Source of the DNA: an uncultured Kineosporia sp.
GTDB taxonomy: Bacteria > Actinomycetota > Actinomycetes > Actinomycetales > Kineosporiaceae
Direction of reading: 5' to 3'
Assembly (NCBI GenBank): GCA_937859855.1
Contig: CALMAR010000140.1
Location: 1-31,627 of the forward strand
Length of the DNA stretch: 31,627 nt
Below the pieces are notes generated by a model that saw only the letters and a program-made list of their open reading frames with translations, had not been told where the DNA came from and ran no database searches. This document shows positions 7,984 through 24,604 of this stretch, piece by piece (position 1 is the stretch's first letter; each line of letters begins with the position of its first letter). The translations under genes were made by a program, and so were the position numbers.

Positions 7984-8631
7984 TCAGTCCGATTCAGGCA
8001 CAGCAGGCGGAAGACCGAGGCGCTCCGACAGCTCCGGTAAGGTCGGGCCAAAGGTTTCCCGGATCACAACCCCGTCCGCCCCGACATCGAAGACAGCCAT
8101 GTCGGTGTAGACACGACTGACGCAGCTGACGCCGGTCAGGGGATAGCTGCATCGGGGGACGAGCTTCGCCGAACCGTTCCGGTCGAACAGTGTCATCATG
8201 ACGAAGACCTGCTTGGCGCCGATGGCGAGATCCATCGCACCCCCGACGGCCGGTATCGAACCCGGCGTACCGGTGTCCCAGTTGGCCAGGTCACCGGTGA
8301 ATGAGACCTGAAAGCCGCCGAGGACGCAGATGTCGAGGTGATTTCCGCGAATCATGGCGAAGGACTCGGCGTGGTCGAAGTAGGCGGCGCCCGGCAGCTC
8401 GGTCACCGGGATCTTGCCGGCGTTCGTGAGGTCGGGGTCGACCTGGGCCCCGACGGCTAACGGCCCCATGTTGAGCATGCCGTTCTCGGTGTGCAGGACG
8501 ATGCCCGCGTCCTCGACGAGGTGGTCCGCCACGAGCGTGGGTTGACCGATGCCGAGGTTGACGTAGGAGCCCGGCGGGATGTCCCTGGCCACGAATGCAG
8601 CCAGTGCGTCACGGTCCAGCGGCCCCCTCAC
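7984..8631 (-). CDS. pcaJ: 3-oxoadipate CoA-transferase, beta subunit
   Basis: A 215-residue class I CoA-transferase subunit that, with the alpha subunit, moves CoA from succinyl-CoA to 3-oxoadipate. The VNLGIGQPTLVADHL and HTENGMLNMGP motifs are visible; Glu49 in the latter is the predicted covalent CoA-carrying residue. DPDLTNAGKIPVTELPG and FxVSFTGDLANWDTG are further family blocks. The GTG start at 8631 overlaps the alpha-subunit stop as GTGA, indicating coupled translation of a heteromer. It is the last gene of the thiolase-alpha-beta operon. Acetoacetate or 3-oxoacid specificity is the alternative, but the PcaF-like thiolase and the hydroxyquinol pathway genes favour 3-oxoadipate. Confidence 0.87.
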   Translation of the reverse strand: MRGPLDRDALAAFVARDIPPGSYVNLGIGQPTLVADHLVEDAGIVLHTENGMLNMGPLAVGAQVDPDLTNAGKIPVTELPGAAYFDHAESFAMIRGNHLDICVLGGFQVSFTGDLANWDTGTPGSIPAVGGAMDLAIGAKQVFVMMTLFDRNGSAKLVPRCSYPLTGVSCVSRVYTDMAVFDVGADGVVIRETFGPTLPELSERLGLPPAVPESD

Positions 8632-9287
8632 GCCAGCACCAGGCGATCGACGTAGATGCATGGCGTCACGACGGTCTCCGGGTCCAGTTCGCCGACGTCC
8701 ACGACCTCGGCGACCTGGACGATCACGTTGCTGGCAGCCGTGGCCATCACGGGGCCGAAGTTGCGGGCGGTCTTGCGGTACACGAGGTTTCCCATCCGGT
8801 CGGCCCTCTGGGCATGGATCAGCGCGACGTCGCCGTTGATCGGGTACTCCAGCGTGTAGCGCCGACCTGCGATCTCGCGCGTCTCCTTGCCCTCGGCAAG
8901 CGGCGTGCCGACCGCGGTGGGCGAGAAGAAGGCGCCTATGCCGGCACCCGCCGCGCGCAACCGTTCGGCCAGGTTGCCCTGGGGCACCAGTTCCAGCTCG
9001 ATCCTGCCCTGCCGGTAGAGATCGTCGAAGACCCACGAGTCCGACTGCCGCGGAAAGGAGCACACCATCTTGCGGACCCGGCCGGCCGCCAGCAACGCGG
9101 CCAGGCCGACGTTCCCGTTGCCGGCGTTGTTCGACACCACCGTCAGGTCGGTGGCTCCCTGCCGGATCAGCGCTTCGATCAGCTGGGTGGGCATCCCGGC
9201 CATGCCGAAGCCTCCGATCAGGACGACGGATCCGTCCTGGACGCCGCTGACTGCCTCGTCCGCGTCCGAACACAGGACGGCGGTCAC
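8628..9287 (-). CDS. pcaI: 3-oxoadipate CoA-transferase, alpha subunit
   Basis: A 219-residue alpha subunit of the class I CoA-transferase. GGFGMAGMPTQLIEAL (about residues 25-40) is the CoA-transferase signature in the family position. Further blocks are NNAGNGNVGLAALL, FPRQSDS and QGNLAERLRAAGAGIGAFFSP, then GTPLAEGKETREIAGRRYTLE. The GTG at 9287 overlaps the thiolase stop as GTGA; starts further upstream would run into thiolase-coding DNA. Together with the beta subunit it feeds 3-oxoadipyl-CoA to the thiolase encoded just upstream. Confidence 0.87.
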   Translation of the reverse strand: MTAVLCSDADEAVSGVQDGSVVLIGGFGMAGMPTQLIEALIRQGATDLTVVSNNAGNGNVGLAALLAAGRVRKMVCSFPRQSDSWVFDDLYRQGRIELELVPQGNLAERLRAAGAGIGAFFSPTAVGTPLAEGKETREIAGRRYTLEYPINGDVALIHAQRADRMGNLVYRKTARNFGPVMATAASNVIVQVAEVVDVGELDPETVVTPCIYVDRLVLA

Positions 9288-22604: not shown

Positions 22605-23708
22605 ATGGACGGCACCGCCACCCGTGGACCGACGGCCTACGAGTCCTGGGCGCAACGCGTCGTCTTCGCCTCGAGGACCGGGGCGGAGGCCGTCGCGCAG
22701 GAGGTGCAGCGACTCGGCGCCGAGCGGGTGCTGCTGATCGCCGGTGAGCCGGAACTGCCGGTGGCCCATGCGTTGACCGCCGGGGTCCCGGTCGCGGCCA
22801 CGTTCTCGGCGGTCCGCCCTCACGTGCCGCCATCCGTCGTAGACGGTGTGCGGGAGGCCGTCAAGGAGTGCGCCGCCGACCTGCTGCTGTGCGTGGGCGG
22901 CGGGTCCACGACCGGCGCGGCGAAGGCCGGCGCCCTGGTCACGGACCTGCCGATCCTCGCCGTCCCCACCACGTATGCCGGCTCCGAGGCGACGCCGGTG
23001 TGGGGCTTGACCGAGAGCGGTCGCAAGAGCACCGGCGTCGACCCGCGCGTGCTGCCCGCGGTCGTGGTCTACGACGCCACGTTGCACCTCACCCTGCCGA
23101 CGACGCTGAGCGTCACCTCGGGACTGAACGCGCTGGCGCACTGCGTGGACTCGCTGTGGGCTCCGCGGCACAACCCGATCAGCAGCGCGCTCGCGACCGA
23201 GGGCATCCGCCGCCTGGCCGACGGGCTCCGCGCGGTCGTCGATGACGGCACCGACCTCGTCGCCCGCGAATCCCTGCTGTACGGAACCTATCTCGCGGGG
23301 GTGTCGTTCGCGGGTGCCGGGTCCGGGTTGCACCACAAGATATGTCACGTGCTGGGCGGGGCCTACGATCTGGAGCACGCCGCGCTGCACTCCGTCGTCC
23401 TGCCGCACGTGGTGGGGTTCAACCTGCCGTCCGCGCCGGGTGCGGCGGCGCGGCTGCGGGAGGCGTTCGGCGCGGACCCTTTCCCGGCGCTGCTGGATCT
23501 CTACCGGAGCGTGGACGCACCCTGCGACCTGGGCTCACTCGGCCTCGGCCCGGAGCAGGTGGACCAGGCGACCGACCTTGTGCTGGCGCAGGTACCCGAC
23601 AGCAACCCGCGTCCGATCTCCCACCTCCAGATGCACGACCTGCTGACCCGCGCCCGCGACGGTCGGGACCCTCAGCTGGTTCCGATCGACGAAACGGAGA
23701 GGCCATGA
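22605..23708 (+). CDS. tsdD: Maleylacetate reductase
   Basis: A 367-residue iron-containing alcohol dehydrogenase family enzyme that reduces maleylacetate to 3-oxoadipate with NAD(P)H. GGGSTTGAAKAGAL (98-111) is the nucleotide loop, and VPTTYAGSEATPVWGLTE (120-137) and LHHKICHVLGGAYDLEHA (242-259) are diagnostic of maleylacetate reductases. GGAGATCAGG precedes the ATG. The stop overlaps the dioxygenase start as ATGA, coupling ring cleavage to the next reduction. Confidence 0.92.
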   Translation: MDGTATRGPTAYESWAQRVVFASRTGAEAVAQEVQRLGAERVLLIAGEPELPVAHALTAGVPVAATFSAVRPHVPPSVVDGVREAVKECAADLLLCVGGGSTTGAAKAGALVTDLPILAVPTTYAGSEATPVWGLTESGRKSTGVDPRVLPAVVVYDATLHLTLPTTLSVTSGLNALAHCVDSLWAPRHNPISSALATEGIRRLADGLRAVVDDGTDLVARESLLYGTYLAGVSFAGAGSGLHHKICHVLGGAYDLEHAALHSVVLPHVVGFNLPSAPGAAARLREAFGADPFPALLDLYRSVDAPCDLGSLGLGPEQVDQATDLVLAQVPDSNPRPISHLQMHDLLTRARDGRDPQLVPIDETERP

Positions 23709-24604
23709 CCCAGGCGCAGCAGGAGGCCGAACGCGAGGCCGGCGAGGCCGCTCGTCGCGAACAGTTCGTCACCGAGGAGACCCTGGCCAGCTTCGCCGGC
23801 GCGCCGCCGAGGTTTCGTGAGGTGATGCAGTCCCTGGTGCGGCACGTGCACGCCTTCGTGCGCGAGACCCGGCTCACCGAGGAGGAATGGAACGCGGGCA
23901 TCGACTTCCTCACCGCCGCCGGCCACATCACCACCCCGACCCGACAGGAGTTCGTGCTGCTCTCCGACGTCCTGGGGGTCTCCATGCTCACCGTCGCGGT
24001 CAACGCCCCGCCTCAGGGCGACGCCACCGAGGCGACGGTCTTCGGGCCGTTCTTCGTGGTGGACTCCCCGGGCGTCGAGCTCGGCGGCGACGTCGCCGGC
24101 GAGGCATCCGGAGAACCCTGCTGGGTCACCGGAACCGTCCGTGACACCAGCGGTCAGCCGGTCGCCGGCGCCCGGATCGAGGTGTGGGAGGCCGACGACG
24201 AAGGCATGTACGACGTCCAGTACACCGACGGCCACCTCGCCGCGCGGGCCCACCTGTTCACCGACGAACTCGGTCGGTACCGCTTCTGGGCACTGACTCC
24301 CACGCCGTACCCGATTCCCGACGACGGTCCGGTGGGCAAGCTGCTGAACGCCTCCGGACGGTCGCCCATGCGCGCGTCGCACCTGCACTTCATGGTCACG
24401 GCCGACGGCCTACGCCGACTGGTCACGCACATCTTCGTCGCCGGCGACCGGTTCCTGGACTCCGACTCCGTGTTCGGCGTCAAGGAGTCCCTGGTCTACG
24501 ACTTCGCCCGGCACGAGGCGGGTACACCTACGCCCGACGGACGGGAGCTCGACGGCACCTGGTCGTCGGTCGAGTTCGACATCGTGCTGGCGTCCCAGCT
24601 CTGA
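23705..24604 (+). CDS. tsdC: Hydroxyquinol 1,2-dioxygenase (intradiol)
   Basis: A 299-residue iron(III) intradiol dioxygenase that opens hydroxyquinol to maleylacetate. The Fe ligands are Tyr169 (GMYDVQY), Tyr202 (PYPIPDDG), His226 and His228 (RASHLHFMV). The N-terminal helical dimerisation domain (about 20-100, FREVMQSLVRHVHAF) and ATEATVFGPFFV are typical of the hydroxyquinol/catechol subgroup. EGMYDVQY and GPVGKLL favour hydroxyquinol over catechol. The ATG at 23705 overlaps the reductase stop. Last gene of the large operon. Confidence 0.92.
   Translation: MTQAQQEAEREAGEAARREQFVTEETLASFAGAPPRFREVMQSLVRHVHAFVRETRLTEEEWNAGIDFLTAAGHITTPTRQEFVLLSDVLGVSMLTVAVNAPPQGDATEATVFGPFFVVDSPGVELGGDVAGEASGEPCWVTGTVRDTSGQPVAGARIEVWEADDEGMYDVQYTDGHLAARAHLFTDELGRYRFWALTPTPYPIPDDGPVGKLLNASGRSPMRASHLHFMVTADGLRRLVTHIFVAGDRFLDSDSVFGVKESLVYDFARHEAGTPTPDGRELDGTWSSVEFDIVLASQL

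What the first reader, a model, noticed from the sequence alone, without database searches (positions are those of the whole stretch)
7984..24604. Complete gamma-resorcylate to TCA-cycle island with a sugar-type ABC importer
Seen: decarboxylase, FAD hydroxylase, hydroxyquinol dioxygenase, maleylacetate reductase, two CoA-transferase subunits and PcaF-type thiolase, all with intact catalytic residues, in one 17-kb stretch. Known: Rhodococcus jostii RHA1 uses tsdA/B/C/D for gamma-resorcylate with a single-polypeptide transporter. Inference: here the uptake step is a CUT2 (ribose-type) ABC importer locked by ATGA overlaps into the catabolic operon. That would be an unusual transport solution for a small aromatic acid, or the true substrate may be a glycoside or other conjugate of resorcylate/resorcinol.
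Basis: partly seen in the sequence, partly recalled or inferred. Interest (0 to 1): 0.75.

Follow-up and report, generated by a model that had tools for sequence, protein, structure and literature searches.

The report
Sugar-type importer in resorcylate operon
An uncultured actinobacterium appears to feed a known pathway for breaking down a plant-type aromatic acid through a sugar-type importer instead of the usual single-protein transporter, beside genes that may make that acid from larger two-ring compounds.

Summary
The importer is a complete CUT2-type ABC system. Orthologous decarboxylase operons have an aromatic-acid-type MFS permease instead: in or beside the operon in 7 of 12 loci read, CUT2 binding protein in 0 of 12. 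Seven of the 12 share an exact promoter motif, TTCAC-N24-GTGAA; the window's only copy lies just upstream of the importer, none before the decarboxylase. Five other contigs, judged by equal contig length, pair this importer clade with the hydroxylase. I read this as a transporter swap inside one regulon. The permease gene overlaps a cupin gene whose 43-52% relatives lie at tetrahydroxynaphthalene-synthase-type genes and whose 63% relative lies in a recurrent extradiol dioxygenase / FAA hydrolase / Zn-dehydrogenase module that the window also has. I infer, not show, that this module makes gamma-resorcylate from a bicyclic phenol or quinone, perhaps the imported compound. Nothing found supports a sugar conjugate. 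The ligand is undecided.

The parts
7984..8628 (-). 3-oxoacid CoA-transferase subunit B (PcaJ/ScoB family)
   Evidence: TIGR02428 252 bits, cut-off 243.55
8628..9368 (-). 3-oxoacid CoA-transferase subunit A (PcaI/ScoA family); family match starts at residue 33, true start probably inside
   Evidence: TIGR02429 342 bits, cut-off 128.5
9284..10480 (-). PcaF-like thiolase
   Evidence: best models PcaF-type, below the PcaF cut-off
10550..11440 (+). LysR-type regulator, divergent from the thiolase
   Evidence: PF00126, PF03466
11497..12414 (-). VOC protein, probable type I extradiol dioxygenase
   Evidence: PF00903; 3B59, BphC relatives; 57-66% relatives beside FAA hydrolases
12428..13543 (-). Zn-dehydrogenase / quinone-oxidoreductase-like
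   Evidence: PF00107, PF08240; best NCBIfam PIG3 quinone oxidoreductase 152 bits, cut-off 296.8
13540..14472 (-). FAA hydrolase family (acylpyruvase-like)
   Evidence: PF01557; relatives
14511..14554 (-). Two TGGTGAA half-sites in the FAA hydrolase promoter, possible second operator (weak)
   Evidence: half-sites at 14516 and 14535, 8 copies in the whole window; matrix score -0.06, rank 8
14636..15541 (-). IclR-family regulator; likely start near 15458
   Evidence: PF09339, PF01614; 60-66% to IclR genes of five Streptomyces operons
15557..15600 (+). Operator/promoter motif TTCAC-N24-GTGAA (exact core 15562-15595)
15649..16773 (+). CUT2-type substrate-binding lipoprotein (start GTG 15649 or ATG 15688)
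   Evidence: PF13407; model pLDDT 90.3; folds
16783..18300 (+). CUT2-type ATPase, two nucleotide-binding domains
18297..19379 (+). CUT2-type permease
   Evidence: PF02653
19376..19969 (+). Cupin related to PKS-linked (MomA-type) cupins
20072..21046 (+). gamma-Resorcylate-type decarboxylase (Amidohydro_2)
21059..22582 (+). FAD monooxygenase, presumed resorcinol hydroxylase
22605..23708 (+). Maleylacetate reductase
23705..24604 (+). Hydroxyquinol 1,2-dioxygenase

Best explanation
This is an IclR-linked gamma-resorcylate operon of the tsd/gra kind in which the usual aromatic-acid MFS permease is absent and a CUT2-type ABC importer plus a cupin lie between the shared operator/promoter motif and the decarboxylase gene. 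The importer delivers an aromatic substrate of this regulon: most likely gamma-resorcylate itself (my estimate 0.45), or a hydroxylated aromatic precursor that the cupin and the VOC / FAA hydrolase / dehydrogenase genes turn into it (0.3). Then gamma-resorcylate -> resorcinol + CO2 -> hydroxyquinol -> maleylacetate -> 3-oxoadipate -> 3-oxoadipyl-CoA -> succinyl-CoA + acetyl-CoA. Shown by sequence: gene families, order, the shared motif, the different permease. Inferred: every activity, the ligand, that IclR binds the motif, and the direction of the swap.
For: Enzyme identities. Five Streptomyces operons with decarboxylase (82-84%), hydroxylase (63-64%), MFS, reductase, dioxygenase, and an IclR gene at 60-66%, without CUT2; MFS in or beside the operon in 7 of 12 decarboxylase loci, CUT2 SBP in 0 of 12. 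Exact motif at fixed spacing in 7 of the 12, once in the window, upstream of the SBP gene. Equal contig lengths for SBP and hydroxylase hits in 5 of the 20 best SBP rows after the window, 0 of the 99 rows below. FAA hydrolase near 5 of 11 more distant SBP relatives. Precedent: a CUT2-family SBP of Rhodococcus AH-ZY2 reported as needed for phthalate ester uptake (PMC13188901, abstract and passages). The Asp of the GFD motif of sugar-type SBPs such as 2IOY is Ala in the window protein and absent in the relatives aligned.
Against: No ligand data. The structural neighbours listed for the SBP are sugar, AI-2 or unnamed CUT2-type binding proteins. A 41% SBP relative in Subtercola lies beside a galactose cluster (galT, galK, galM, galE, DeoR), while one of that genome's two decarboxylase loci has an MFS. 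Five of 12 decarboxylase loci lack the exact motif (L049, L050, L059, L060, L061) and five have no MFS in or beside the operon (L052 has one about 7 kb away; L053, L059, L060, L061 none found). I picked the aligned sites after seeing the window. Contig pairing rests on equal lengths, not on read DNA. In PMC13188901 the SBP mutant also grew worse in LB and intracellular ester levels did not change significantly.
Confidence: 0.72

Rival explanations
1. The importer's ligand is not gamma-resorcylate but a bicyclic hydroxynaphthalene/naphthoquinone-type compound; the cupin makes a quinone, the Zn-dehydrogenase reduces it, the VOC enzyme opens the ring to an aroylpyruvate, and the FAA hydrolase releases gamma-resorcylate and pyruvate. 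(A special case of the best explanation.)
For: Permease and cupin genes overlap. Cupin relatives at 43-52% lie next to, or one gene from, a type III PKS in 9 of 9 loci read. The 63% relative lies in a VOC / FAA hydrolase / Zn-dehydrogenase locus with an ABM-domain protein. The module recurs beside catechol, gentisate and hydroxyquinol lower pathways.
Against: No substrate known for any of these enzymes; the Zn-dehydrogenase is below the quinone-reductase cut-off and the VOC is nearer to other extradiol enzymes than to 1,2-dihydroxynaphthalene dioxygenase (2EHZ, E 0.00096); cupin and module together seen in one other locus only; six of 13 module loci show no lower pathway; no such route in the paper searches.
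Confidence: 0.27
2. A sugar or cyclitol importer that lies in the operon by chance or serves a different need.
For: Fold neighbours; galactose cluster beside a 41% relative; transporter families best matched are sugar systems.
Against: No sugar enzymes in the profiled window ORFs; motif upstream of the importer; contig pairing with the hydroxylase; lost GFD Asp.
Confidence: 0.13
3. One reading: uptake of a glycoside or other conjugate of resorcylate or resorcinol.
For: Sugar-type SBP fold.
Against: No glycoside hydrolase or sugar kinase among the window ORFs profiled. Alpha/beta hydrolases occur in the flanks (1789-2811, 24730-26049), not in the operon.
Confidence: 0.08

Closest known systems
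tsd gamma-resorcylate genes of Rhodococcus jostii RHA1 (Kasai 2015; not held; gene content recalled; TsdR line seen in PMC8222616 Table 1)
   Same: Decarboxylase, hydroxylase, hydroxyquinol dioxygenase, maleylacetate reductase, IclR-type regulator.
   Different: CUT2 importer and cupin instead of a single-polypeptide permease; the TsdR motif GTGTGRYTSSMRTCAYAC has no match with up to 3 mismatches in the window.
Streptomyces operons L046, L047, L048, L050, L051
   Same: Same enzymes at 55-84% identity, IclR at 60-66%; exact promoter motif in four of the five.
   Different: MFS permease between hydroxylase and reductase; no CUT2, no cupin; IclR at the far end in L050.
CUT2-family SBP 4497 of Rhodococcus sp. 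AH-ZY2 (PMC13188901, abstract and passages)
   Same: CUT2-type ABC system reported for an aromatic compound.
   Different: Phthalate esters; its sequence was not compared here.
MomA-type quinone-forming monooxygenases at type III PKS genes (Funa 2005 seen only as a reference; PMC7463872 and PMC4573997 passages)
   Same: Cupin 43-52% identical to PKS-linked cupins.
   Different: No PKS found in the window; placed in a degradation operon.

Membership tests
tsd/gra gamma-resorcylate catabolic genes | gamma-Resorcylate decarboxylase homologue with the metal-site motifs | tested here: met
   scores above 5-carboxyvanillate and 2,3-dihydroxybenzoate decarboxylases
tsd/gra gamma-resorcylate catabolic genes | Hydroxyquinol dioxygenase and maleylacetate reductase in the operon | tested here: met
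tsd/gra gamma-resorcylate catabolic genes | Hydroxylase acting on resorcinol | not testable with these tools
   Only an MhpA-like FAD monooxygenase family is shown
tsd/gra gamma-resorcylate catabolic genes | IclR-type regulator next to the operon (usual, not strictly defining) | tested here: met
gamma-Resorcylate operon with MFS permease (transport part only) | Aromatic-acid-type MFS permease gene in the operon | tested here: not met
   None between 15649 and 24604; the window's MFS at 2888-4129 scores 50 bits on the aromatic acid/H+ symport model, cut-off 418.55
CUT2-type ABC importer | PF13407 SBP, two-domain ATPase and PF02653 permease together | tested here: met
Monosaccharide-binding SBP of the ribose type | Asp of the GFD motif | tested here: not met
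   GFA in the window protein; by sequence alignment only; the L008 row was misframed and is left out
MomA-type quinone-forming monooxygenase | Homology to PKS-linked cupins | tested here: met
   that MomA itself is a cupin is recalled
MomA-type quinone-forming monooxygenase | Oxidation of a hydroxynaphthalene to a quinone | not testable with these tools
   needs an enzyme assay

The most novel reading that the evidence does not exclude
A modular route that breaks down fungal or plant hydroxynaphthalenes/naphthoquinones (juglone or dihydroxynaphthalene-like): a biosynthetic-type cupin recruited for degradation, a quinone reductase, an extradiol dioxygenase and an aroylpyruvate hydrolase yield a hydroxybenzoate, and its ring pattern decides whether a catechol, gentisate or gamma-resorcylate/hydroxyquinol lower pathway is attached; here a CUT2-type importer binds the bicyclic aromatic. 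This would give gamma-resorcylate breakdown a natural source and CUT2 importers a new ligand class.
Probability: 0.27. Interest if true: 0.78.

Novelty: new variant of a known kind. Interest (0 to 1): 0.55.

Why it matters
By family this importer would be annotated as a ribose-type sugar system; regulon and neighbourhood evidence says that it serves an aromatic pathway. If the ligand is aromatic, a clade of CUT2-type proteins with a changed pocket needs re-annotation. The attached cupin / VOC / FAA hydrolase module makes it directly testable where gamma-resorcylate comes from.

Tried and rejected
Plasmid megablast with 15600-24700: no match. No whole genome held for the window. Viral-contig scan with the SBP alignment: no relative. 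SBP scans: genome contigs 10 loci, best 42-43% over most of the length, 56% over a third; phylum 3 of 396 genomes at E <= 1e-40 with at most 4 candidates scored per genome; class 2 of 158 and order 2 of 160 at E <= 1e-60, all 38-40%. So no readable second locus with CUT2 and an ortholog of the decarboxylase was obtained; L003 has an SBP at 43% and a decarboxylase-family protein at 43%, with the ATPase matched in two pieces only. The RHA1 TsdR motif has no match in the window. With one mismatch allowed, the TTCAC-N24-GTGAA pattern is found by chance in 40 of 100 shuffles, so only the exact form counts. Decarboxylase as 2,3-dihydroxybenzoate or 5-carboxyvanillate type: lower scores. Paper searches listed no report of a CUT2 or other ABC importer for gamma-resorcylate, nor of a naphthoquinone-to-gamma-resorcylate route; the library holds open-licence papers only and I saw listings and passages, no whole text. 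Equal contig length 2,695 between one low SBP row and one decarboxylase row comes from different sources and was taken as chance.
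Full report
What is there. The window (31,627 bases, 68.7% GC) has no genome held; its SBP is listed on two contigs, the longest 31,627 bases. I take it for an assembled contig of an unnamed actinobacterium, because the nearest named relatives of the decarboxylase are Streptomyces, Nocardia and Georgenia at 79-84%.

The plus-strand operon. SBP 15649-16773, ATPase 16783-18300, permease 18297-19379, cupin 19376-19969, decarboxylase 20072-21046, hydroxylase 21059-22582, maleylacetate reductase 22605-23708, hydroxyquinol dioxygenase 23705-24604. 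Junctions in order: +9, -4, -4, +102, +12, +22, -4 bases. The overlaps tie the importer to the cupin, not to the decarboxylase.

The transporter swap. The decarboxylase was sought in 295 Streptomyces genomes; 8 matched at E <= 1e-100. In two other orders 1 of 248 and 2 of 249 genomes matched at E <= 1e-90, with four places. I read all 12 places with 17.7 to 19.9 kb each by tblastn with window and annotated plasmid proteins. Five (L046, L047, L048, L050, L051) read decarboxylase-hydroxylase-MFS-reductase-dioxygenase; L049 has the MFS after the dioxygenase and no hydroxylase or IclR match; L058 has IclR-MFS-hydroxylase divergent from the decarboxylase. L052 has such an MFS about 7 kb away; L053, L059, L060 and L061 showed none. 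The SBP matched in none of the 12. In the 11 genomes themselves, SBP relatives occur elsewhere in 5, at 29-30% and, in Subtercola, 40%. The L046 MFS is best matched by the aromatic acid/H+ symport model, 225 bits, cut-off 418.55, so its class is a best match, not a curated call. IclR genes at 60-66% lie at five of the Streptomyces operons (far end in L050), at 47-55% in L052, L053 and L058.

The operator. Comparing promoters I saw a motif with fixed spacing. The exact form TTCAC-N24-GTGAA is in the promoter regions of L046, L047, L048, L051, L052, L053 and L058; L050 has a diverged copy that I aligned by eye; L049, L059, L060 and L061 have none. A weight matrix from the eight aligned sites, window left out, has its best window hit at 15557-15600, 32.4 bits (the reverse strand of the same site 15.7, an overlapping one 8.0); the next separate place scores 4.9, and the best of 30 Markov-simulated windows 11.5. 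I chose the sites after seeing the window, so the matrix is not independent. The exact motif occurs once in the window, 0.006 expected from base composition; over 111 fetched loci, 15 hold it, all of them decarboxylase loci (some are two records of the same place) except L062, 10 kb from the Subtercola SBP, probably chance. The copy lies between the IclR and SBP starts; the 102-base gap before the decarboxylase has none. So importer and cupin stand between the promoter motif and the decarboxylase. That an MFS was lost and an ABC system gained, rather than the reverse, is inferred from which arrangement was commoner among the loci read. Two TGGTGAA half-sites 19 bases apart lie in the FAA hydrolase promoter; the matrix score there is weak.

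Recurrence. Of the 20 best SBP rows after the window (59-88% identity), 5 share an exact contig length with a hydroxylase hit: 3,872,123; 28,372; 10,445; 10,257; 9,171. Two of these also match a decarboxylase row. Of the 99 SBP rows below, none matches a hydroxylase row and one (2,695, different sources) matches a decarboxylase row (111 of 120 decarboxylase rows compared). Paired rows share at least one source. This is indirect linkage; the other 15 rows may be short, may lie further down the capped list, or may lack the gene.

The upper module. VOC 11497-12414, Zn-dehydrogenase 12428-13543 and FAA hydrolase 13540-14472 recur: 12 of 295 Streptomyces genomes have the VOC at E <= 1e-70. Of 13 loci read, 6 have all three at 49-66% (L097, L099-L102, L104) and 10 have VOC plus FAA hydrolase; near them the probes found catechol meta-cleavage genes in L095, L096 and L099, gentisate dioxygenase in L100 and L101, hydroxyquinol dioxygenase with maleylacetate reductase in L097 and L104, and none of these in the other six. 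Annotated plasmids agree: Streptomyces NBC_01454 with a catechol-type lower pathway, Caballeronia with gentisate dioxygenase. Among the 295 genomes, 3 of 8 with the decarboxylase also have the VOC, against 9 of 287 without (Fisher p 0.003; not corrected for genome size or kinship). In those three the two lie far apart. None of the 13 loci has the promoter motif.

The cupin. Of 15 plasmid hits listed (105 records in all) I read six, and three more places in genomes: in 9 of 9, all 43-52%, a type III PKS gene is next to the cupin or one gene away. [quoted passage not shown] PMC4573997 (passages) gives MomA a predicted role in oxidising tetrahydroxynaphthalene to flaviolin but lists momA among P450 genes; that MomA is a cupin is my recollection of Funa 2005, seen only as a reference. 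The 63% relative, in L099, lies beside the Zn-dehydrogenase and 3.6 kb from the VOC, with an ABM-domain protein between (24.4 bits, cut-off 23.1). The cupin was found in 4 of 18 genomes tried, in the module only once.

Chemistry (inference from general knowledge of NahC-type enzymes and acylpyruvases, no call). Extradiol cleavage of a 1,2,4-trihydroxynaphthalene would give 2-hydroxybenzoylpyruvate, which an acylpyruvase would split to salicylate and pyruvate; with one more hydroxyl in the peri position the product is 2,6-dihydroxybenzoate, gamma-resorcylate. This would explain one upper module beside catechol, gentisate and gamma-resorcylate pathways. It is not demonstrated.

Known and new. 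The lower pathway is known. For CUT2-type uptake of aromatics one precedent was found (PMC13188901). No CUT2 importer for gamma-resorcylate appeared in the paper searches named. I rate it a new variant of a known kind; interest 0.55, mainly for the swap under a shared promoter motif and for the testable source of gamma-resorcylate.

Noticed in passing
5080-6270 and 6162-7562 (+): DUF3500 protein followed by a HupE/UreJ_2 protein; a DUF3500 gene also lies near a 43% SBP relative in Streptomyces L004 at 2434-3567.
   Followed up: no
L058 12038-12071: A second exact TTCAC-N24-GTGAA site in Subtercola, just upstream of an aldehyde dehydrogenase gene next to the decarboxylase; aldehyde dehydrogenases also adjoin the decarboxylase in L052, L053 and L059.
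   Followed up: partly
L011 (Agrobacterium leguminum pTi plasmid): Decarboxylase relative 66% identical to the window's, with maleylacetate reductase, intradiol dioxygenase, SDRs and an aldehyde dehydrogenase, between branched-chain-amino-acid-type and peptide-type ABC genes.
   Followed up: partly
L012 (Herbiconiux plasmid): 36% SBP relative in a cluster of MhpA-type hydroxylase, VOC, FAA hydrolase, thioesterase, MaoC, acyl-CoA dehydrogenase and thiolase, like a pathway for an aromatic with an alkyl chain.
   Followed up: no
L104: Streptomyces VOC / FAA hydrolase / Zn-dehydrogenase locus with hydroxyquinol dioxygenase, maleylacetate reductase and a SnoaL-like protein but no decarboxylase match; transposases nearby.
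   Followed up: no
28964-31623 (-): Patatin-like protein and, at the right end, a frame with a partial MFS match and a short MoCoBD_2 match.
   Followed up: no
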